IMG/VR virus record: IMGVR_UViG_3300042691_033629
Location: 1 to 21,342 of that record
From: a virus
Strand: one strand, 5' to 3'
Length of the DNA stretch: 21,342 bases
The notes beneath the pieces were generated by a model. It had not been told where the DNA came from, ran no database searches, and was given only the letters and a program-made list of their open reading frames with translations. The stretch's first letter is position 1; every line of letters starts with the position of its first letter. Below are positions 1,826-16,693 of this stretch, piece by piece. The position numbers were made by a program, and so were the translations under genes.

Positions 1826-2527
1826 TTAATTTCCAATAATTTTTCTTATTGAATCATCGTATTTTTTTAAATTATTGTTTATTTGTTGTACTGATTCTTT
1901 CAATGGTTCATTTTTTGTTTCCAAAAATAAATAAGCATTAGGTGTAGAAGGTGTAGCTACAAGGTCAAAACAGATAAGTTCGAAATCATCTTGAACAATA
2001 TTTTTCCCACCTACCTTTTTAACACTACCCAATCCTCTTGAGGAAATACCAAGTTTGAGATTTCTTTGTAAGTAAAGAGCAATCTTATCACCAATTGTCC
2101 AACCGATACCATCTCTCATGAATGAATCACTAACAATAATGTCAAGTGTTCCATAAACAGCATTACCTGACCACCATGTTTTGGCAATTCTATGGGATAT
2201 ATTTTGTAAAGAGATTGTAACACTTTCGGGATGGTCTGCTTCATTAAGTGCTGCATAATCATTGATAAGTTTTTGATATTCATCTATTTGTTTTGCTAAT
2301 ATTTCTCTTGGGTAAACTCTACCGTTTCTATTTAAAACATCAGCTTCTTGTAATTTACAATCAATATAAAAGTGACCATCAAAATCATTTCTTTTTGCTC
2401 TAAGATTTAGGTCTTCAAATATTTTTTTATTATTAATTGTTAAATCATTGCTAATAATACCTGCATCAGTTTCTACCAATAAACCATAACCTTCTTGCCC
2501 TTCTTTTAGGAGTTGTACTTCTTTCAT
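1826..2527 (-). CDS. Prohead maturation protease, T4 gp21-like
   Basis: This 233-residue protein is the head-maturation serine protease that digests the scaffold and trims capsid proteins inside the prohead. Family features are visible in order. NRNGRVYP (66-73) is typical of T4-type prohead proteases, ADHP supplies the probable catalytic His99, and GISSRG supplies the probable nucleophile Ser162 or Ser163. The motif ELICFDLVATPSTPNAY (183-199) follows and contains an Asp (188). The length is close to T4 gp21 (about 212). The start overlaps the previous stop as TAATG, implying translational coupling with the upstream core-protein candidate. Near its N-terminus LKEG (7-10) resembles the L-x-E cleavage site of T4 gp21 and could be a self-processing site. 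It sits between the portal-adjacent gene and the scaffold, as in T4. Confidence 0.9.
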   Translation of the reverse strand: MKEVQLLKEGQEGYGLLVETDAGIISNDLTINNKKIFEDLNLRAKRNDFDGHFYIDCKLQEADVLNRNGRVYPREILAKQIDEYQKLINDYAALNEADHPESVTISLQNISHRIAKTWWSGNAVYGTLDIIVSDSFMRDGIGWTIGDKIALYLQRNLKLGISSRGLGSVKKVGGKNIVQDDFELICFDLVATPSTPNAYLFLETKNEPLKESVQQINNNLKKYDDSIRKIIGN

Positions 2528-3325: not shown

Positions 3326-5140
3326 TTATTCTTTTATTAATCTATCTAATTCCGCAGTCTTTTTAAATATTTCTTCACTTAGAAATCCTGCACCACCTGC
3401 TGCGCCACCGCCACCTGCTTCAGGTCCACCACCCATAGGGGGCGCACCACCACCTGCTTCAGGTCCACCACCCATAGGAGGCGCACCACCTCCCATATCA
3501 GAACCACCTAAACCACCACCAAGTGCATTATCTAATTGTTGTTGCTCTGAACCACCTTGCTGCCCTTGTGCTTCAACATTAAATCCTGCATTTTTATATT
3601 TAATCATTTTATCCATTACACCTGAAGTTTTAATTAACATACCAGCACTCTTAACTTCTTCACCAATCTTAGATTCAAGCATTTGCTCTTGAAGGTCATT
3701 TAATATATCTTCTTCAGACATATGGAAGAATTTCTTTCTTGCCATCATTTCTGACATTGGTTTTAAACCTGTATTAGTATTTGGTGTTGTAGCTTGTGCA
3801 TATACTTCTAATTTAGATTTCCAAATTTCAAGTTGCAGTAAATCAGATGCAGTTGATGGATTGTTAAGTGATAATTTAAAATCATCAATATATGATTCAT
3901 AATCACCACCAAGTAAACCCAAATGAATAATTGCAATTTTATTAAGTTCTCCAAGTAACGCTTGTTGAATACGATTTACTTTTCTTGCAAAACGAATATC
4001 AAGCATTGATAAGTTTTTACCTCCACCTTCACCTGTTGAATCAGATGAGAAACCAAGCAATGTTTTATGAATACCTAAACCTGTAAATAAATTATCACGA
4101 AGATAATTAATATCAGATATAGCCTCAAGATTAGATGCACCAGGAAGTGTATCAACAAATTGACCTGATGTGTTACCCCTATCAGCAATAAAGATATCTT
4201 CATCCATTGATGCAATATTATATTTAAAGTTAATATCACCTGTCTTAGGGTCAACTAATTTCTTTTTCTTTACATTGTTAGCAAATGCCTCAAGAATTTG
4301 TGGAACATCTTCAGGTGGAACATTACCAACAGGAACTTTATAAATTCTTCTTTCTGCTGCTCTTGTAATACGATACACCATCATAGCATCCTCCATCATA
4401 AAGAGTTGTTTATATGTTCTTCTTACTTTTTCATATACACTACAACCATATGGAAGTCTATCACCTGTACCCAATAATCTAAAATGTGCAACTTGATAAT
4501 CCATATATTCTTCTTCGCCACCTGAGTTAGGGTCTTTATATTTGAAGAATGCTCTGAATCTATTTTTAGCATCATATCTTTCATTTCTCTCAACAAATTG
4601 AGAGGCAAGTTGTCTAAAATCTACAATACCATTATCTTTAGACATTTCTAAGAAAACAAAGTTATCACCATATTGACACATATTTCTGCACCAATAGAAT
4701 AAATTTGTATTCACATCCATAACTTTATAAAAAAATCTTTCAAGTTCTTTTTTAACTTTATCGGATGAACAATAAACATTTAAGATTTGACCTGTATCAC
4801 TTTTAGTTGTGGTAGCTTCTTCAGATAATAAATCCAATGCTGCACCTAAAATTGGATAACCATCCATTGACAAATAATCATAGTAGAGCATCATTCTACT
4901 AGATTCATACATCAACTTACGTTGGTCATTACCTCTATCAATTTTAGTGCTTTGACCTCTATAAAATTTTATAGCACCATCCTCAACTGCTGTTTTAATT
5001 GCATCTTCTTGGGATGCTGCTGTTATAAATTCTTTTTGTGCAGGTGCTTCAAGTCTATTACTAACTCCATCCAAAGCATCGGTTGCTCTTTTAAAGAAAG
5101 TATTAATGTTTGAAAATAACCCTTTATTATCTTCTGCCAT
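3326..5140 (-). CDS. Portal vertex protein, T4 gp20-like
   Basis: This 604-residue protein forms the dodecameric ring at the special capsid vertex through which DNA enters and to which the neck and tail attach. The core matches T4 gp20: SSRMMLYYDYLSMDGYPI near residues 80-97, the strongly conserved MMEDAMMVYRITRAAERR (248-265), then a VGNVPPEDV stretch, TLPGASNLEAISD (331-343) and the following RDNLF helix. Its length is somewhat above that of T4 gp20 (524), partly because of a C-terminal tail. Residues 540-584 are almost entirely Gly, Pro, Ala and Met with a perfect 13-residue duplication, ending in a short charged helix. Such a tail is unusual for a portal and is probably disordered. It lies 40 bases downstream of terminase, its functional partner; the genes for sheath and tube that separate 17 from 20 in T4 are not here. 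Confidence 0.95.
   Translation of the reverse strand: MAEDNKGLFSNINTFFKRATDALDGVSNRLEAPAQKEFITAASQEDAIKTAVEDGAIKFYRGQSTKIDRGNDQRKLMYESSRMMLYYDYLSMDGYPILGAALDLLSEEATTTKSDTGQILNVYCSSDKVKKELERFFYKVMDVNTNLFYWCRNMCQYGDNFVFLEMSKDNGIVDFRQLASQFVERNERYDAKNRFRAFFKYKDPNSGGEEEYMDYQVAHFRLLGTGDRLPYGCSVYEKVRRTYKQLFMMEDAMMVYRITRAAERRIYKVPVGNVPPEDVPQILEAFANNVKKKKLVDPKTGDINFKYNIASMDEDIFIADRGNTSGQFVDTLPGASNLEAISDINYLRDNLFTGLGIHKTLLGFSSDSTGEGGGKNLSMLDIRFARKVNRIQQALLGELNKIAIIHLGLLGGDYESYIDDFKLSLNNPSTASDLLQLEIWKSKLEVYAQATTPNTNTGLKPMSEMMARKKFFHMSEEDILNDLQEQMLESKIGEEVKSAGMLIKTSGVMDKMIKYKNAGFNVEAQGQQGGSEQQQLDNALGGGLGGSDMGGGAPPMGGGPEAGGGAPPMGGGPEAGGGGAAGGAGFLSEEIFKKTAELDRLIKE
3411..3488 (-). repeat. Two 39-bp direct repeats in the portal C-terminal tail
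   Basis: Bases 3411-3449 and 3450-3488 are the same 39-bp unit, differing by a single base (ggggg versus ggagg). They encode two copies of a 13-residue Gly/Pro-rich unit containing APPMGGGPEAGGG. The unit is much richer in G+C than the surrounding DNA and looks like a recent in-frame duplication. Confidence 0.9.
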
Positions 5141-5180: not shown

Positions 5181-6962
5181 TTATCTGACAAATATGTAAG
5201 GATTATTATTTATTTTTGGTGTCTGACGTTCAGGTACTATATCCATATTCGTACCATTTGTATACCAATCCTTCCCTTTGAGCATGTCATTCTTTCTTTC
5301 ATAGTTTGCATCCTGACCATCTTGACTCAACATTTTCTTTTGGAATTCAGTATTCATATCAGTAAATTCATCACCCTTTCTAACTATTGCTGATTTAGCA
5401 TAGTTTAAATAAATATTAAATTCATTTCCAATAGTTTTTGAAAACATATAAACTGCAAATAACATACCTGTAGCAATCAATAAGTCATCATGCGCTGAAC
5501 GCATATGGTCATATCTATTTGTATTATCGTTAAATACAAATGTTTTGATTTCACTAAGTAATCTAATTGAATGAATCAATGACTCACCTTCTCTTAATCT
5601 TCTCTCAAATTCCCTAATAACATAATCACGAATAGCACCACTCTTCATTGTGAATCCTGGTTGTAATTCACCTCTTTGTAAATTCTTTAATTGAATTTTT
5701 ACATCATTTTGTCTTGGTCTATCGTAATGTATTTTCTTATATTTTTTATTAACCAAATATCTAATAACTGATATACCCCAACCTCCTGTTACGTCAACAA
5801 TAACATATGCATTATTATATTTTTCACCATATTGCAAACATAATTCACCCATTACTTCAAGTGGAACTCTTGATTGATATTCAGCTACTTGAACAAGTAA
5901 CATATTTACAGCATCATTTTTAAATATTTGAATTGTAGAATAGTCACCATCACCACTACCTTTTGCAACGTCACAAGATAAATAATAATCATATCCAAAT
6001 ATTGGGTCTTCCCAAATCCAAAAATTATTATCATACTCAGTTCTAATAGGTTCTTTACAAGTCTTTTCAATTCTCATAATAGTTTCCTCATCAACAAGGT
6101 TACCACCTGAACCTAAGAACTTATTTTCTAATTCTTGTGCAATTTTTCTTGGGTCATTGTTAAAGGTTTGACACATATCCCTAAACCAAGAAGATGATGG
6201 TCTATAACCATTAACTCTTAACTCCATATATTTTTCAGGGTCTTTTTCTTCAACAAACTCATCACCCCTAATCCAAATTAAATCTTCATTATAACGAGGG
6301 TCTTCAAACCAATTAATTTCAACAACTTTAAAGTTATTTTTCTTTGTTCTAGCACCTTCATAACGAGCATAATATGTTGGGTCAAGTCCTCTTGGTGTTG
6401 AGTTTAATATAATCTGACCACCTGCTGACATTGTACCTGATGCAGAAGACATAAATTCTTCACCTTCTTCAAGGAACGCTGCTTCATCTATAAATAATAT
6501 ATCAGGTGTAAATCCCCTTAGACCATCGGCAGATGCTGCGAAAGCCTGTAGTGTTGCACCATTGTTATAAATCTTAATCTCTTTTGTATCTGAATCAGTT
6601 GGTATTCTACCAAATATTTCTCTTGGTAAATTATTGATGATGGATGCTATCTGATAGAAGATACTTTCTTTTGCAAGTTTTAATTTGTTAGCTGCAACAC
6701 CAACTTTAATATCTTTTCTAAAAACAATTGAGTGTGCTAAGTAAAGACAAGTCACGGTAGTAATACCACCCTGACGATATTTTGCAACTAAAACTCTGTT
6801 ACTTTCTTTATATGTTTCTAAAACTTGTGTTTGTTGTGGTAATAATTGAAAAGCCACATACTGTTGTTTTTTCTTATCCCAAACTTTACAATATTTTCTT
6901 GCAAAGTACTCTATATCAATAGCGCACTTGGCATACTCCATCATTAGTTCATGTTTAGTCAT
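5181..6962 (-). CDS. terL: Terminase large subunit (T4 gp17-like packaging ATPase/nuclease)
   Basis: This 593-residue motor protein pumps DNA into the prohead through the portal and cuts the concatemer. The N-terminal ATPase shows a Walker A region KYRQGGITT (61-69), Walker B ILFIDEAAF (155-163) with Asp159/Glu160, and coupling motif NSTPRG (187-192). The C-terminal RNase H-fold nuclease has the acidic residues expected for metal binding: Asp331 in SCDVAKGSGDGDYS, Asp390 in YVIVDVTGGWG, and Asp492/493 in SAHDDLLIATG. The length agrees with T4 gp17 (610). The Walker A lacks the usual Lys before Thr (RQGGIT instead of GKT); the Lys at 61 ahead of it may substitute, as known in several terminase lineages. 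The preceding gene's stop lies 15 bases upstream. No small terminase is recognisable next to it. Confidence 0.96.
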   Translation of the reverse strand: MTKHELMMEYAKCAIDIEYFARKYCKVWDKKKQQYVAFQLLPQQTQVLETYKESNRVLVAKYRQGGITTVTCLYLAHSIVFRKDIKVGVAANKLKLAKESIFYQIASIINNLPREIFGRIPTDSDTKEIKIYNNGATLQAFAASADGLRGFTPDILFIDEAAFLEEGEEFMSSASGTMSAGGQIILNSTPRGLDPTYYARYEGARTKKNNFKVVEINWFEDPRYNEDLIWIRGDEFVEEKDPEKYMELRVNGYRPSSSWFRDMCQTFNNDPRKIAQELENKFLGSGGNLVDEETIMRIEKTCKEPIRTEYDNNFWIWEDPIFGYDYYLSCDVAKGSGDGDYSTIQIFKNDAVNMLLVQVAEYQSRVPLEVMGELCLQYGEKYNNAYVIVDVTGGWGISVIRYLVNKKYKKIHYDRPRQNDVKIQLKNLQRGELQPGFTMKSGAIRDYVIREFERRLREGESLIHSIRLLSEIKTFVFNDNTNRYDHMRSAHDDLLIATGMLFAVYMFSKTIGNEFNIYLNYAKSAIVRKGDEFTDMNTEFQKKMLSQDGQDANYERKNDMLKGKDWYTNGTNMDIVPERQTPKINNNPYIFVR

Positions 6963-9027: not shown

Positions 9028-9543
9028 TTAATACCTTCTTCTTTTTTTACTTTCATTTAAAGTTTCACCTCTAACACCAGTTTCTCTTAAAGCTTCTAAT
9101 ACAGCTTTTGTTAGTGTCATTCTACCTAATTTAGGGGCTAAATTTCTAGTAAACACACTAGCTTCTAATCCATCACTTAATTTACCTGATTTAATTAAAC
9201 CCTTTTCAATTACATTAAGTAAAGAATCTCTACTACCTCCTGCTGCAAGACCTTTATCAATTAAATCAAATAACCAATCCATTAGTTTACTACCTTGTTG
9301 ATATTTAGCACCTAATTTAGTACCTGTTTCATCTTCTTTTAAAGATTTCTTTTTCAACATTTCATTTTCTCTTTGAAGAGTCTTCACTTTTTCTTCAAGC
9401 ATTTTCTTCTTTGTTTGTTCAAAGATATCATTGAAATCAAGTTTTTTTGAATCTTCTCTTTTTAAATAACCTTCTCTAAGAAGTTCTCTCTTTGCTTGAA
9501 CAAAATTTTCGAAAACTAAATTATATAGTTGTTTATTAGTCAT
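9028..9543 (-). CDS. Coiled-coil protein of unknown function
   Basis: This 171-residue protein is not recognised. It is mostly helical. A heptad-like coiled coil spans about residues 40-70 (KKKMLEEKVKTLQRENEMLKK). A second helical region with Gly-rich turns follows (KGLAAGGSRDSLLNVIEKG), and the C-terminus is strongly basic (SKKRRRY). LREG (22-25) and LNES near the end are the type of L-x-E sequence that T4-family prohead proteases cut, so it may be an internal head protein. A small terminase subunit, which is also a short coiled-coil oligomer, is an alternative that the sequence does not prove. It starts just behind an ACTAATTATATTAAAA element that begins at the previous gene's stop. Confidence 0.72.
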   Translation of the reverse strand: MTNKQLYNLVFENFVQAKRELLREGYLKREDSKKLDFNDIFEQTKKKMLEEKVKTLQRENEMLKKKSLKEDETGTKLGAKYQQGSKLMDWLFDLIDKGLAAGGSRDSLLNVIEKGLIKSGKLSDGLEASVFTRNLAPKLGRMTLTKAVLEALRETGVRGETLNESKKRRRY

Positions 9544-9561
9544 GACAATATTTTAATATAA

Positions 9562-10869
9562 TTAGTTAGAATTTATAGAAAATACGTTATTTACTATTTC
9601 TTTTTTATTATCCTTGATAATATCAAATACTTTCTTATTTCTCAATACTTTGAAGACTAAGTTATTTACTGAAAACTCACCTTCTGTCTGTGTTGCTTCA
9701 CCACGTTCTTTCTTAATCTTTTTAAGTACTTTATTATAAGTTTCCATCTTCTTTAATGAATCTTCCATCATTGATATCTTATTAAAGATATCTAAATACT
9801 TGTTAACTTTTTGTGTAACTAAATGCCTATCAACTTCAGGTAATTTATACTTTGGTTTCTTAACCCATTTGTTATCAATTACTGAATACATTGCGCTCTT
9901 ACCCACAGTCTGTTCATTTATATCTTGAACATATATTTCAACAGGATATGAACCAATCTTTACATCATTTGATACTTCCCATGCTGCTCTCTTTTGTAAA
10001 AAATAATTCATTACAAAATCAACATCATCTGAAACATCTTTATAATCAATAACAATATGTAAATCAATATCAGATGAATCTGTATAATTATAATTTGCTA
10101 AACTACCTGTAAAGATTATATCTTTTAATTTTACTTTTGAATCTAATTCTAAACTATTAAAATAGTATTTACCAAGATTTAAAAGATTTTTTCTGATATT
10201 ACTTTTTAAATGATTATTCAACCAAAATTGAGGATTTAAACTTTTATGATATTCAATCTCAACATCTGATTTTAATTTAGATGGGATATTTTCTTCTTCT
10301 ATTTTACTAGCTGTAAAATCAATAACAGGAACTTTTATGATTCCAAGTTCTTTTGCTGCTATCGCTCTATGTCTTCCATCACTATTTCTCACATCTGATT
10401 TATCAGATGAATATAAAGCAAGTGGGTCAAGTTTTTTACCACTTTTTATATGTTCTTTTATATTTTCTATATTTTCTCTTGCTTCATCATCTATTTTTAA
10501 TTCTTTTGTTTTACTTAAAAATTCATCAGGATTCATATAAACAATTTTTCCACCTCTTTTTTCGTAATCTTCATCACCATACCATTTCCCTTTATCTTCT
10601 ATTGGATAATTTAATTTTTCTTTTAAATCTTCCATAATCATTTCTTCCAACTTTGCTTTTTTAAGTTTTGTATAATATTTTGGATTTTCAGCTAAATGGT
10701 CCATTGCAATTTCTTTTGCTTGTTTCCTACTATCCGTATGCTCCATTTCAGTTTTAATACCCAATTTCAGTTGTGATGTTAAATCTACAATAGAAACTTT
10801 AGGTTTTTTATCTTTATGTATTTCAACAATTTTTGACAATGTTAATTTGTCTGCTTTACCTCCTTTCAT
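9562..10869 (-). CDS. DUF5661-like / ParB-like / nucleotidyltransferase fusion protein
   Basis: This 435-residue protein combines three recognisable parts. Residues about 35-70 (GIKTEMEHTDSRKQAKEIAM, then DHLAENPKYYTKL) match the DUF5661 pattern. Residues about 108-190 look like a ParB-type nuclease/NTPase fold, with PDEFLSK, DPLALY and the signature DVRNSDGRHRAIAAKELG (159-176). Residues about 245-330 are a polymerase-beta-type nucleotidyltransferase: FTGSLANYNYTDSSDIDLHI carries Gly255-Ser256 and metal ligands Asp267/Asp269, with Glu311 in PVEIYVQD as the likely third carboxylate. The remainder is basic and helical. The intact NTase residues suggest an active enzyme, but the substrate (protein, RNA, nucleotide) is unknown. 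It is the first gene of the minus-strand head operon and directly faces the divergent control region, so it would be made together with capsid proteins. It is not a typical toxin-antitoxin pair, since no separate partner gene adjoins it. Confidence 0.8.
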   Translation of the reverse strand: MKGGKADKLTLSKIVEIHKDKKPKVSIVDLTSQLKLGIKTEMEHTDSRKQAKEIAMDHLAENPKYYTKLKKAKLEEMIMEDLKEKLNYPIEDKGKWYGDEDYEKRGGKIVYMNPDEFLSKTKELKIDDEARENIENIKEHIKSGKKLDPLALYSSDKSDVRNSDGRHRAIAAKELGIIKVPVIDFTASKIEEENIPSKLKSDVEIEYHKSLNPQFWLNNHLKSNIRKNLLNLGKYYFNSLELDSKVKLKDIIFTGSLANYNYTDSSDIDLHIVIDYKDVSDDVDFVMNYFLQKRAAWEVSNDVKIGSYPVEIYVQDINEQTVGKSAMYSVIDNKWVKKPKYKLPEVDRHLVTQKVNKYLDIFNKISMMEDSLKKMETYNKVLKKIKKERGEATQTEGEFSVNNLVFKVLRNKKVFDIIKDNKKEIVNNVFSINSN

Positions 10870-10926
10870 TTGAAAAATCGTATTTTATACATATAACTAG
10901 AAAAAAACTATTTATAATAAAATATT
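10870..10926. promoter_or_regulatory. Divergent control region for the head operon and the lysis-side operon
   Basis: These 57 bases separate two divergent starts and must hold the leader of both genes. On the minus strand TATAAATA (10916 to 10909) is identical to the T4 late promoter consensus and stands about 40 bases before the ATG at 10869. Read on the plus strand the same place is ACTATTTATAATAAAA (10907-10922), close to elements in front of several other genes, and ends four bases before the ATG at 10927. Neither start has a Shine-Dalgarno sequence. In DNA this rich in A and T such matches can be chance, so promoter assignment is tentative. Confidence 0.4.
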
Positions 10927-12365: not shown

Positions 12366-14519
12366 ATGGAAAAACAACAATTACAACAACCTGCTATTGA
12401 TACTAGAGTCAATGTCAAAAAAGGAAAGAAACGAGAATTTAAAAATCGTAAAACTTTTTCTTTGAAAGCAATGGAGGCTTTGGTTGATAAAGTCAGTTTT
12501 TTAAAAAATAAGTATGATACCTTGGCAATTAATGCACAAGAAAAATTAGGATATCATTATAATGAAATCTTGAACATCTTACTTTTTCATAAATATGTTA
12601 AACCAAATAAGAAATTATTTGAAATGTATAAAAAAGTAAAAGATGCTATAAATAAAGGTTATGAATTTAATAAAAAGAAAAAATTAAAAGAAAATACAAT
12701 GAAAAAAGCAACTGATAAAAACAAAAATACACATTTTGCTATTAATAAAAATACTAATAAGATTTTAGAATCTTGGAATTATGAAGGTTATACACAAGAT
12801 GAATTAAAAAATTATAAAGATGAATTTTTCACAAAAGATATTAAAAGAAATTATCCTTTCTTGAATGAAAATGATGTAGTAGTTGTTTCTAATAAAAATT
12901 TAGGAAAAAGACAACTTAATGAAAATAATAAATCAGATTGGCAAAAATATAATTATTCACACTTTGCTTTATTAAAAGAAACTAATCATATTCTTTATGG
13001 TTTTGATTATTCTAATGTAGATTCAGAAGAATTAAAAGAAAATAAAAATGAATATTTTCTAAATGTTTTATCTGAAGTTTATGGTTCTGATATTTCCGCA
13101 AAAGATGTTGTAGTTGTTAAATCTAGTAAACTTAATAAATTAGGTATTAAAGATTATTTAAATGAATCTAATTGGGTTGGTTTAATTAATGAAGCATATT
13201 GCGGAAGCAATATGGATGAAATGATTGATGAAAACATTGAAGAAAATTTTGAAGAAGAAGGTCTTGAAGAGTCAACCGCAATGAGTGGTGGAGATGGTAT
13301 TGGTATGTTTGGTGCTGAAGGTCCACCTGTAATGAGAGGTAGTTTTGATTTAAGTCCTAATCAAGATATGTTTAAAGCAAAAAATATGAAACCTTCTGTT
13401 AAAAAGGGTATTAAAAAATATCAGTCTGAATTTTCAAATCCAACTTTTAAACAAACTACTGAACCTGAATTTATTACACCTGTAAAAACAACTCATTTTC
13501 AAGGTACTAAAAAGAAAGCAATGAAAGAAAACTATGATTTAGTTGATTTAGATGCTTTAATGAATGATGAGATTGTAGAATACAAAAAATTATCCACACC
13601 TAGTAATGTATTTAAAAGCCCTAAGATTGAATTAATCAGAGAAAACAATAGAGATAGTATAACTGACTTTATAGTAAAACATCAAGGTCATGAATTACCT
13701 GAATATTATAATAAAAGACAATTAAATAATCTTTCATTAAAAACTTTAAATGAATATTATAATAGATTAGTTCAAAGACTTGGTTTATTAGAAGAAGAAA
13801 AAAGACCTGATGCATTAGTTAGAATTGATGCACTTAAAAAGCAATCTGAAAAAGATTCCAATTCTTATTATAAAAAAGATGCAAGTACAAAAACAACAAC
13901 TATGCTTGTTCAAAAAGGTGAAGGTGATAGTTTAGTATATGATAAAGATTCTTTAGAAAAGAAAGATATACCAAAATATAAATACCAATCTGAACATCAA
14001 AAAGATTATCTTGAAAAGATTCATAGAGGATTAGAAGATTTTGTTCCTGAAAACCAACCAAATGGTGAAGTTGACCCACAATGGGAGGCAAGAAAGAAAG
14101 CATTAATGAGTACACAAGAAGTTGGTGCTAAACAATATGATTCATCTAAGAAAAGAATTAAAGCAAAACAAGATAATAAACTTGGTACTAACAAAGCAGT
14201 ATTAATGCAAAAAGATTTACCTGCGGTTAAAAAAGATGATAAAGTCCTAAAAGAAGATAAATTCACAGTTCTAAATGAAGAAAATATCTTAAATCAGATT
14301 CAATCTTATTACATTGATGACGAAAATAGAAAAAAACCTGTTATATTTGATTCAAACAATATCGTTGAAATGGGAAAAATCAATGAAAATAAACTTATTG
14401 GTTATAAAGAATTAACATATAAAGGTTTAGGTCAAACTTTATCTGAAGATTTTAAAAATAGAGTTTTAAACAAAAGACTTCTTTACTCACCAGTAAGTAA
14501 AAAAGTTATTTTAGTTTAA
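12366..14519 (+). CDS. Large putative structural protein with an internal domain duplication
   Basis: This 717-residue protein has no domain that I can name. An N-terminal helical part (about 30-100) precedes two related segments of about 65 residues. The first (122-185) starts THFAINKNTNKILESWNY and the second (198-262) starts SHFALLKETNHILYGFDY. Both continue with an EELK/DELK helix, K-[DN]-E-[FY]-F and a DVVVV strand. An acidic stretch follows (about 280-303), then a Gly/Met-rich linker and a long Lys/Glu/Tyr-rich region to the C-terminus. Repeated L-N-E and L-x-E sequences (QLNEN, LINEA, LLEEE, VLNEE) recall prohead-protease substrates. Size and layout suggest a virion or head-internal protein, made apart from the main head operon. 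The start follows a short A/T leader. Confidence 0.75.
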   Translation: MEKQQLQQPAIDTRVNVKKGKKREFKNRKTFSLKAMEALVDKVSFLKNKYDTLAINAQEKLGYHYNEILNILLFHKYVKPNKKLFEMYKKVKDAINKGYEFNKKKKLKENTMKKATDKNKNTHFAINKNTNKILESWNYEGYTQDELKNYKDEFFTKDIKRNYPFLNENDVVVVSNKNLGKRQLNENNKSDWQKYNYSHFALLKETNHILYGFDYSNVDSEELKENKNEYFLNVLSEVYGSDISAKDVVVVKSSKLNKLGIKDYLNESNWVGLINEAYCGSNMDEMIDENIEENFEEEGLEESTAMSGGDGIGMFGAEGPPVMRGSFDLSPNQDMFKAKNMKPSVKKGIKKYQSEFSNPTFKQTTEPEFITPVKTTHFQGTKKKAMKENYDLVDLDALMNDEIVEYKKLSTPSNVFKSPKIELIRENNRDSITDFIVKHQGHELPEYYNKRQLNNLSLKTLNEYYNRLVQRLGLLEEEKRPDALVRIDALKKQSEKDSNSYYKKDASTKTTTMLVQKGEGDSLVYDKDSLEKKDIPKYKYQSEHQKDYLEKIHRGLEDFVPENQPNGEVDPQWEARKKALMSTQEVGAKQYDSSKKRIKAKQDNKLGTNKAVLMQKDLPAVKKDDKVLKEDKFTVLNEENILNQIQSYYIDDENRKKPVIFDSNNIVEMGKINENKLIGYKELTYKGLGQTLSEDFKNRVLNKRLLYSPVSKKVILV

Positions 14520-15613: not shown

Positions 15614-16693
15614 ATGAACTTTATTAATAATTTGGAATCACCTAAGTTTGATTTCCATGATATCGCTTTAGTACCATCCGTATTATCAAAAGTAGAATCA
15701 AGAAGTCAAATTAATTTACAATTCCCTCTTCCATTGGTTGCATCTCCAATGAACTCTGTTCTTTCAATTAAAAGAAAAGAACGATTCAATGAAGACTTTT
15801 ACAATCAATTACTTGGTGAAATGATTGTATGCGTACCAAGAAGCTATGAATATAGTAAAGAAAACGAACATTTACAATGGTGTGAGTTTGCATTTAAATC
15901 AATTTCATTACAAGAGTTTAGATTAATTGAAACTGATTTTGAAGCTTTTGAAACTATTGTAAAAGATTCCAAAGGTATATTAGTTGATATTGCTAATGGA
16001 CATATGTGGAAACTCCTTGATTTGTCCAAGATTTTCTTAAAAAAGTTTAAAGATAAAAAATTAATGATTGGTAATATTGCTAATCCACATACATATGATG
16101 AGTTTTCTAAAATTGGTGTCCATTATTGTCGTATCGGTATTGGTGGCGGTAGTGTTTGTACAACAAGTGCTAATGCTTCAATTCATTATCCAATGGCATC
16201 ATTGATTTATGAATGTAATCAAATTAGGATTGCTAATGCACATAAATCTAAAATTGTTGCTGATGGTGGATTTAAAAACTTTGCAGACATTATTAAGGGT
16301 CTTGCTCTTGGTGCAGATTATATTATGCTTGGTGGTATTTTAAATAAATGCTTGGATTCGGATTCTCACCCCTATCTTTGGAAAAGATTTAAAATTACTA
16401 ATATGTCTTTAGCTAATTGGTTTTATAGAAATAAATTTTCATTATATAAAAGACATGTTGGTATGTCTACAAAAGAAATTCAAAAGATTTGGGGTAACTA
16501 TAAACTAAAAACATCTGAAGGTATTGCCAAATGGAATAAAGTTGAATATAGTTTTGATGGTTGGCTTGAAAATTTTAATGATTATCTGAAAAGTACAATG
16601 AGTTATTTGAATTGTACAAATTTGGAAGAGTTAAAAGAAAAGGCTACCTTTGTATTCATTACTGAAAATTCATTCAGGAGATTTCATAAATAA
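15614..16693 (+). CDS. guaC: GMP reductase/IMP dehydrogenase-family enzyme
   Basis: This 359-residue TIM-barrel enzyme belongs to the family that interconverts GMP and IMP/XMP. Motifs in order are SPMNSV (44-49), LVDIANGH (123-130), IGNIANP (152-158), catalytic loop GIGGGSVCTTSA (175-186) with Cys182, ADGGFKNFADIIKGLALGAD (216-235), IMLGG (237-241), GMST (283-286) and an EG pair (302-303), then a C-terminal ending like the STxxY...F segment of GMP reductases. The DxANG motif, the short length without a CBS insert, and the C-terminal pattern favour GMP reductase (E. coli GuaC is 347) over IMP dehydrogenase. After Cys the loop reads SANASIHYPM, where the family usually has R-x-x-T-G-V-G-x-P-Q, so substrate or mechanism may differ. 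It is followed five bases later by the DNA polymerase, which suggests a role in supplying purine nucleotides during replication. Confidence 0.8.
   Translation: MNFINNLESPKFDFHDIALVPSVLSKVESRSQINLQFPLPLVASPMNSVLSIKRKERFNEDFYNQLLGEMIVCVPRSYEYSKENEHLQWCEFAFKSISLQEFRLIETDFEAFETIVKDSKGILVDIANGHMWKLLDLSKIFLKKFKDKKLMIGNIANPHTYDEFSKIGVHYCRIGIGGGSVCTTSANASIHYPMASLIYECNQIRIANAHKSKIVADGGFKNFADIIKGLALGADYIMLGGILNKCLDSDSHPYLWKRFKITNMSLANWFYRNKFSLYKRHVGMSTKEIQKIWGNYKLKTSEGIAKWNKVEYSFDGWLENFNDYLKSTMSYLNCTNLEELKEKATFVFITENSFRRFHK

What the first reader, a model, noticed from the sequence alone, without database searches (positions are those of the whole stretch)
9562..10869. Three-domain DUF5661 / ParB-like / nucleotidyltransferase fusion leading the head operon
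The sequence shows a DUF5661-type motif, a ParB-like DGRHR signature and an intact GS...DxD nucleotidyltransferase site in one 435-residue chain. ParB-like folds can bind or hydrolyse nucleotides and NTases transfer nucleotides to proteins or RNA, so the fusion could be a self-contained modifying enzyme. Its position as first gene of a late head operon suggests it is made in quantity and perhaps packaged with the DNA, acting on the host at the next infection. The function is inference.
Basis: partly seen in the sequence, partly recalled or inferred. Interest (0 to 1): 0.6.

Follow-up and report, generated by a model that had tools for sequence, protein, structure and literature searches.

The report
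Modular phage head-operon effector protein
A T4-like phage makes, at the start of its capsid-gene cluster, a multi-part protein with a constant catalytic nucleotidyltransferase end and a middle part that close relatives delete, swap or enlarge, which looks like a swappable payload for host takeover or counter-defence; which payload does what, and whether it rides in the virion, is not yet shown.

Summary
Window 9562-10869 on the MINUS strand encodes a 435-aa protein with DUF5661 (res 25-71), a ParB/Srx-fold module (~83-195) and a Pol-beta-type nucleotidyltransferase (~202-428). Sequence profiles, a conserved site and predicted structures support this. Asp267, Asp269 and Glu311 are invariant in 13 diverse homologues. 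It is the first gene of the late head operon: a T4-type late promoter element, TATAAATA, sits at -47 and is kept in all eleven loci compared (window plus ten).

The same locus in 12 related phages shows nine architectures. A relative 98% identical in the NTase lacks ParB altogether. Others carry a different ParB, unknown modules B or C, or an N-terminal CCA-adding enzyme plus HD domain. NTase and DUF5661 are constant; the middle is a variable slot. In unrelated phages the same NTase and DUF5661 are fused in the opposite order, once with an Acb1-like (anti-CBASS) 2H domain. The ParB module recurs in giant polyvalent proteins.

Best reading: a polyvalent, module-swapping effector of a T4-like phage, probably head-delivered. 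Packaging, protease processing and substrate are inferred. New variant of a known kind.

The parts
9562..10869 (-). 435-aa modular protein: DUF5661 - ParB/Srx module - Pol-beta-type nucleotidyltransferase (NTase); first gene of the head operon
   Evidence: ORF and translation; domain hits; homologues
10909..10916 (-). TATAAATA, T4-type late promoter element, 47 nt upstream of the ATG
   Evidence: Only minus-strand exact match between 1 and 11793; same position in all eleven loci compared
10866..10892 (-). Leader mini-ORF MYKIRFFK*, its stop overlapping the gene's ATG (ATGA); in L002/L012 the CCA-adding-enzyme module is inserted in frame with this leader
   Evidence: Sequence and upstream comparison
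10657..10797 (-). DUF5661 domain (residues 25-71), predicted all-helical
   Evidence: Pfam E=1.8e-12; model pLDDT about 95
10618..10650 (-). Junction DUF5661/ParB with three L/I-x-E motifs (LEE, IME, LKE; residues 74-84), candidate prohead-protease sites
   Evidence: Junction statistics; protease specificity from PMC9026906
10285..10623 (-). ParB/sulfiredoxin-fold module (residues 83-195), the exchangeable slot; absent in L001-L003, replaced in L004-L012
   Evidence: phrog_1033, A5, model and fold search, architecture survey
10366..10380 (-). DGRHR signature (residues 164-168), ParB/Srx nucleotide-site motif
   Evidence: Conserved in the ParB-module alignment
10294..10302 (-). I-E-E (residues 190-192) just before the NTase; an L/I-x-E motif in this linker in 9 of 11 clade members
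9586..10266 (-). NTase domain (residues 202-428), constant part of the protein in all intact clade loci
   Evidence: phrog_36119 E=4e-41
10063..10107 (-). Catalytic GS-x10-DxD (Gly255-Ser256 ... Asp267, Asp269); third carboxylate Glu311 at 9937-9939
   Evidence: Both Asp and Glu311 invariant in 13 homologues
9028..9543 (-). Second gene: constant N-terminus - variable core - constant basic tail; T4-internal-protein-like layout
   Evidence: Alignment of 11 loci
5181..6962 (-). Terminase large subunit (head operon context)
   Evidence: Pfam Terminase_6N
3326..5140 (-). Portal protein, gp20 family
   Evidence: Pfam Portal_T4 E=3e-68
1826..2527 (-). S77 prohead protease (gp21 family), the enzyme proposed to cut the junctions
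   Evidence: Pfam Peptidase_S77 E=3e-23

Best explanation
It is a modular 'polyvalent' effector precursor of a T4-like phage. Late transcription from the conserved TATAAATA makes it together with the head proteins [promoter: shown by conservation; activity inferred]. The constant parts are DUF5661 at the front and a catalytically intact Pol-beta-type NTase at the back [shown]. Between them lies a slot in which relatives carry nothing, one or two payload modules; here it holds a ParB/Srx-fold NTP-binding module [shown]. Most likely the protein is enclosed in the prohead, cut at L/I-x-E sites in the linkers by the S77 protease, and the modules are injected with the DNA [inferred]. There the NTase transfers an NMP to a host or phage target, most likely an RNA (tRNA) end. 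The ParB module, an NTP-binding switch or nuclease, adds an independent takeover or counter-defence activity [inferred, substrate weakest].
For: Domains and active site. Late promoter and operon. Variable slot: nine architectures in the clade; clean in-frame presence/absence against near-identical flanks; L009 looks like an in-frame deletion of an L010-like parent at a short repeat; TerL 96% but NTase 66% identical between window and L008, so alleles are exchanged. Same domains in independent effector-like fusions: NTase+DUF5661 in reverse order (L118, L132; L110 adds an Acb1-like 2H domain, 28.6 bits against a cut-off of 27, and a metallopeptidase-like C-terminus); ParB module in a TerL-adjacent protein with a weak ART-PolyVal match, in 1300-2760-aa proteins, and in short phage proteins starting MKLLLENWRKFINE|S or MKLLLENWRAFLTE|G. 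Junction L/I-x-E enriched 7-fold, p about 0.006-0.009 after composition shuffling; the MCP has LINE|S at the expected place. The nearest cultured relative has a DUF5661 gene ahead of TerL/gp20/protease/MCP, starting MKKSQLRQIIKE|A. RNA-end hint: CCA-adding enzyme and HD domain in the same ORF in L002/L012.
Against: No proteomics. No capsid-targeting leader on this protein. [LI]xE near the N-terminus is not enriched in DUF5661 proteins as a group (13 of 54 against 85 of 289 controls). DUF5661 genes often lie far from the portal gene. Linkers are Glu/Leu-rich and related by descent, so the junction statistics are not independent. Stand-alone NTase relatives sit by replication genes, so the NTase can work inside the cell without packaging. 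PDB fold hits for the NTase are weak and mixed (CD-NTase, AadA, MNT, CutA).
Confidence: 0.5

Rival explanations
1. Not packaged: an intracellular late enzyme. The NTase repairs or modifies RNA/tRNA (or another substrate) during late infection, and the gene sits in the head operon only for timing; the slot modules are accessory enzymes.
For: Stand-alone NTases lie beside regA/DNA polymerase/uvsX-type genes or tRNAs in cyanophages and Cr30, and in no head operon seen. CCA-adding enzyme and HD domain fused in L002/L012. Poly(A)-polymerase-like Pfam hits in 7 of 13 members. No targeting leader.
Against: Late head-operon expression is kept in the clade; payload-like module swapping and Acb1/ART/ParB partners are typical of injected polyvalent proteins (PMC5512222).
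Confidence: 0.3
2. The three domains form one integrated enzyme: ParB senses NTP and gates the NTase, DUF5661 docks it.
For: All three occur in one chain; both ParB and NTase folds handle nucleotides.
Against: ParB is missing from L001-L003 and replaced in the others while the NTase stays 66-98% identical; ParB relatives occur with quite different partners.
Confidence: 0.08
3. Structural/scaffold protein: a core component of the prohead in which the NTase and ParB folds are retained for binding only.
For: Late head operon; the neighbour gene and the ORF at the window's end also have L/I-x-E rich sequences.
Against: Catalytic Asp267/Asp269/Glu311 invariant in all homologues; extreme architecture variation is unlike a structural component.
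Confidence: 0.07

Closest known systems
Phage polyvalent proteins (Iyer et al. 2017, PMC5512222)
   Same: Several conflict-related domains in one chain in a late-gene context; ParB/Srx-type domain; orthologues that differ in domain make-up; ParB module shared with proteins that carry ART-PolyVal-like domains
   Different: Smaller; T4-like head operon with S77 protease; hub domain is DUF5661, not MPTase, ArdC or MuF; constant Pol-beta NTase of phrog_36119; one slot varies among close relatives
T4 internal proteins IPI-IPIII and Alt (PMC9026906, PMC12373910)
   Same: Made late with the head; L/I-x-E motifs as for gp21; variable, counter-defence type cargo at a genomic hotspot
   Different: No N-terminal capsid-targeting leader; multidomain; presence in the virion not shown
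Stand-alone phage NTase family phrog_36119 (cyanophages, Cr30, Maribacter Molly/Colly, Lak phages)
   Same: Same NTase with G[SG]x10DxD, VExY and C-terminal GEFSxENLxFKxLRN motif
   Different: Single-domain there, in replication or miscellaneous gene neighbourhoods, not in the head operon
ParB-CTPase fold fusions in phages (PMC12704722)
   Same: ParB/Srx fold fused to phage-specific domains
   Different: The text names DUF3850, DUF4417, DUF6551, DUF1983 and methyltransferase partners in phages; 'nucleotidyltransferase' does not occur in it, and DUF5661 was found in no paper of the library

Membership tests
Pol-beta nucleotidyltransferase superfamily | G[S/G]-x(7-13)-[D/E]-x-[D/E] plus a third carboxylate on a beta strand | tested here: met
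   Asp267, Asp269, Glu311 invariant in 13 homologues; weak fold hits to CdnE, AadA, MNT, CutA
Pol-beta nucleotidyltransferase superfamily | Demonstrated nucleotidyl transfer | not testable with these tools
   Needs an assay
ParB/sulfiredoxin superfamily | Alpha/beta ParB-N fold with conserved Arg/His in a G-E/R-R/H-R type box | tested here: met
Canonical ParB partition protein | TIGR00180-level match with DNA-binding HTH, and a parA partner | tested here: not met
   17.2 bits against a cut-off of 58; only the ParB-N part is present and no ParA-like ORF was seen among the window's listed ORFs
DUF5661 (PF18905) | Score above the gathering threshold | tested here: met
   47.8 against 27 bits
Phage polyvalent proteins | Two or more conflict-related domains in one chain, late-gene context | tested here: met
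Phage polyvalent proteins | Orthologues vary in domain make-up and modules are shared with other polyvalent proteins | tested here: met
Phage polyvalent proteins | Delivered with the DNA | not testable with these tools
   No virion proteomics available
T4-type internal (injected) head protein | Short N-terminal capsid-targeting leader ending in L/I-x-E | tested here: not met
   Protein starts MKGGKADKLTL; no enrichment in DUF5661 proteins at large. So it is not filed as a T4 IP
T4-type internal (injected) head protein | Cleavage by the S77 protease at L/I-x-E | tested here: inconclusive
   Motif enriched at module junctions, p about 0.006-0.009 after composition control, non-independent data
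MntA/HepT-type toxin-antitoxin NTase | MntA model match and an adjacent HEPN partner | tested here: not met
   13.6 bits against a cut-off of 60; no HEPN domain was found in the neighbouring head-operon genes scanned

The most novel reading that the evidence does not exclude
The locus is a payload cassette of T4-like phages: a DUF5661-NTase chassis with an exchangeable slot flanked by prohead-protease sites, so that each phage lineage loads a different set of enzymes (ParB-type NTPase, CCA-adding enzyme/HD, unknown modules B and C; in other phages the same chassis parts with an Acb1-like anti-CBASS domain) into the head as one polyprotein that is cut apart during capsid maturation and injected as separate effectors.
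Probability: 0.25. Interest if true: 0.75.

Novelty: new variant of a known kind. Interest (0 to 1): 0.52.

Why it matters
T4 injects a few small counter-defence proteins and Alt. If this locus is a multi-enzyme equivalent with a swappable slot, one gene and its relatives would give a ready list of unknown phage effectors: modules B and C, the ParB module, the phrog_36119 NTase, and other DUF5661 partners. It would also show how T4-like phages renew their injected arsenal. The phrog_36119 NTase, present in cyanophages, Lak megaphages, Caulobacter and Bacteroidota phages with an invariant active site and no assigned function, becomes directly testable. DUF5661 appears in none of the 5.4 million papers searched, yet it is a recurrent partner of enzymatic phage domains.

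Tried and rejected
Whole-protein L/I-x-E count: not above shuffled sequence (window 9 against 5.9 expected, p=0.11). Only the junctions are enriched, and modestly once composition is controlled. DUF5661 as a general capsid-targeting tag: rejected as a general rule, because DUF5661 proteins show no N-terminal L/I-x-E excess, and in only 3 of the 11 records with a gp20 portal does the DUF5661 gene lie within about 10 kb of it on the same strand. ParB as a partition protein: rejected. MntA/HepT toxin-antitoxin: rejected. NTase assignment to CD-NTase, aminoglycoside adenylyltransferase, CutA or MNT: hits too weak (best E 2e-3, low TM-scores). Sequence search of PDB with the protein: no hit. Two attempts to align ParB relatives into the full-length alignment failed because MAFFT placed them on the NTase, so the ParB module was modelled separately. 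Module C had no relative in the annotated phage collection; modules B and C had no Pfam or PHROG hit. PADLOC gave only weak NTase-region matches. The broken homologue L013 (frameshifted) was left out of comparisons.

Full report
WHAT IS THERE. The gene lies on the minus strand, 10869 to 9562 (435 aa). Pfam finds DUF5661 at residues 25-71 (E=1.8e-12) and an NTase signal at 241-321. PHROGs finds a ParB-like match at 129-193 (E=4e-7) and the phage family phrog_36119 over 202-428 (E=4e-41). The ParB module was modelled from an alignment of 17 relatives (pLDDT 87). Its best PDB matches are ParB N-domains, Noc, sulfiredoxin, SerK and SbnI, so the ParB/Srx fold is real; it lacks the rest of a partition protein. 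The full-length model gives a confident helical DUF5661 (about 95) and a confident NTase (about 90), while the ParB part is poor there for want of alignment depth. The NTase matches CdnE, AadA, MNT and CutA only weakly: Pol-beta superfamily, subclass undecided.

THE ACTIVE SITE IS KEPT. In 13 NTase homologues from this clade, cyanophages, Caulobacter Cr30, Maribacter Colly and metagenomic phages, the G[SG]x10DxD motif with Asp267 and Asp269 and the strand residue Glu311 are invariant, as is most of a C-terminal GEFSxENLxFKxLR-type signature. dN/dS in the NTase is 0.07-0.18.

LATE HEAD OPERON. Downstream on the same strand come TerL, gp20 portal and the S77 protease, and an acidic ORF that runs off the window end. 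The sequence TATAAATA (T4 late promoter element; from general knowledge of T4) is found 47 nt before the ATG, the only exact minus-strand copy in the first 11.8 kb. It is kept in all ten homologous loci compared. In L002 and L012 it lies 24 nt before an upstream ATG, the start of the leader peptide MYKIRF..., into which a CCA-adding enzyme has been inserted in frame.

THE FUSION IS NOT FIXED. IMG/VR holds 13 loci with this gene, one of them broken (L013). Reading the ORFs of the twelve intact ones gives, with the window: DUF5661-ParB-NTase (window); DUF5661-NTase (L001, L003); CCA/HD-DUF5661-NTase (L002); CCA/HD-DUF5661-C-NTase (L012); DUF5661-B-NTase (L004, L005); DUF5661-C-NTase (L006, L008); DUF5661-C-second ParB type-NTase (L007); DUF5661-C-B-NTase (L010, L011); and a remnant form (L009) that looks like an in-frame deletion of an L010-like parent. 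That is nine architectures at one syntenic locus. L001 is 98% identical to the window in the NTase yet has no ParB, and the DNA on both sides of the missing segment is almost identical. The window and L008 are 96% identical in TerL but 66% in the NTase, so alleles are exchanged too. A 'three-domain enzyme' is therefore the wrong unit; the constant chassis is DUF5661 plus NTase.

WHERE THE PARTS OCCUR ELSEWHERE. The NTase alone is found in many phages, but next to regA/DNA polymerase/recombination genes or tRNAs, hence as an intracellular enzyme there. NTase and DUF5661 are fused in the opposite order in other phages (L118, L132). In L110 the chain runs NTase-DUF3008-DUF5661-2H phosphoesterase matching Pfam Acb1 (anti-CBASS, 28.6 bits, cut-off 27), with a metallopeptidase-like C-terminus judged by eye. 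DUF5661 also accompanies NMNAT-like, 2H/Acb1-like, DUF2213, possible phosphatase and acetyltransferase-like, and portal/MuF-like sequences (acetyltransferase and portal/MuF by eye). The ParB module has relatives in proteins of 1300-2760 aa, in an Octadecabacter virus protein beside TerL that also has a weak ART-PolyVal match (39% identity to the window ParB), and in small phage proteins beginning MKLLLENWRAFLTE|G or MKLLLENWRKFINE|S, which resemble T4 capsid-targeting leaders (T4 leaders described in PMC9026906). This is the company of injected 'polyvalent' proteins (PMC5512222).

PACKAGING AND PROCESSING: THE WEAK LINK. T4 gp21 cuts after L/I-x-E (PMC9026906). In this clade the MCP carries SYLINE|STDATSSGSFE at the expected place (inferred from position). 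In the modular protein L/I-x-E occurs in 23 of 25 unique junction strings, 7 times denser than elsewhere. In 14 less redundant junctions the excess survives composition shuffling at p about 0.006-0.009, but the sequences share ancestry and whole-protein counts are ordinary. The next gene (9028-9543) has the clearest layout of all: constant N-terminus, a variable core and a constant ...E-[SN]-KRRRY tail. The nearest cultured relative, Flavobacterium phage immuto (TerL 29% identical), has a DUF5661 gene ahead of TerL-gp20-protease-MCP, and that protein starts MKKSQLRQIIKE|ALDA. Against this: the window protein has no such leader, DUF5661 proteins as a group show no leader excess, and many DUF5661 genes lie far from the portal. 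Delivery in the head is somewhat more likely than not for this clade, but unproven.

FUNCTION. The NTase must be assumed active. The best hint at its substrate is RNA ends: a tRNA CCA-adding enzyme with HD domain fused into the same ORF in two relatives, poly(A)-polymerase-type Pfam matches in 7 of 13 members, and 2H phosphoesterase partners. Protein NMPylation and small-molecule transfer remain open. For the ParB module, NTP-dependent switching (PMC12704722) or nicking (PMC5512222) are the precedents.

VERDICT. Observation confirmed; interpretation partly supported. The real interest is the module-swapping slot in a late head operon of T4-like phages, a new variant of the polyvalent-protein theme.

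Noticed in passing
window 9028-9543 (-): Second gene of the operon: conserved 60-aa N-terminus, core that varies greatly among 11 relatives, conserved tail E-[SN]-..KRRRY; looks like a T4 internal-protein cargo gene with two cleavage sites.
   Followed up: partly
L110:2933-5179: Single 749-aa protein with NTase, DUF3008, DUF5661, an Acb1-like 2H domain (anti-CBASS, above Pfam cut-off) and a SprT-like metallopeptidase C-terminus; a natural multi-defence candidate.
   Followed up: partly
L118:3239-4351 and L132:3260-4345: NTase and DUF5661 fused in the opposite order, placed among tail-fibre-like genes, with a C-terminal ...RAGIPPLLR motif.
   Followed up: partly
L086 and L088: Two DUF5661 proteins with the same C-terminus (ESQKKLIKKLIRENLGF), one with module C inserted right after DUF5661, one without: the same cassette behaviour in another gene.
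   Followed up: no
L021:1736-4465: Portal/MuF-like phage protein ending in a DUF5661 domain.
   Followed up: no
L074, L075, L079, L097, L115: DUF5661 proteins with an N-terminal domain carrying an AGNTRL-type motif that resembles the ParB/Srx box; Pfam did not name it in the one scanned (L074).
   Followed up: no
window 12366-14519 (+): 717-aa protein with two related THFAI.../SHFALL... segments separated by LNE/LKE motifs; possibly a second protease-processed head protein.
   Followed up: no
window 15614-16693 (+): Phage protein matching a PHROG 'dehydrogenase' family (E=4e-47), IMP dehydrogenase/GMP reductase-like by eye.
   Followed up: no
L050:2439-2837, L056:2371-2769: Small SprT-like metallopeptidase gene (HELVHQKQ motif) directly after the major capsid gene, resembling the C-terminus of L110.
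   Followed up: no
L045:3932-4687: Flavobacterium phage immuto DUF5661 protein has a weak match to T4 RegB endoribonuclease (E=0.006) behind the DUF5661 domain.
   Followed up: no
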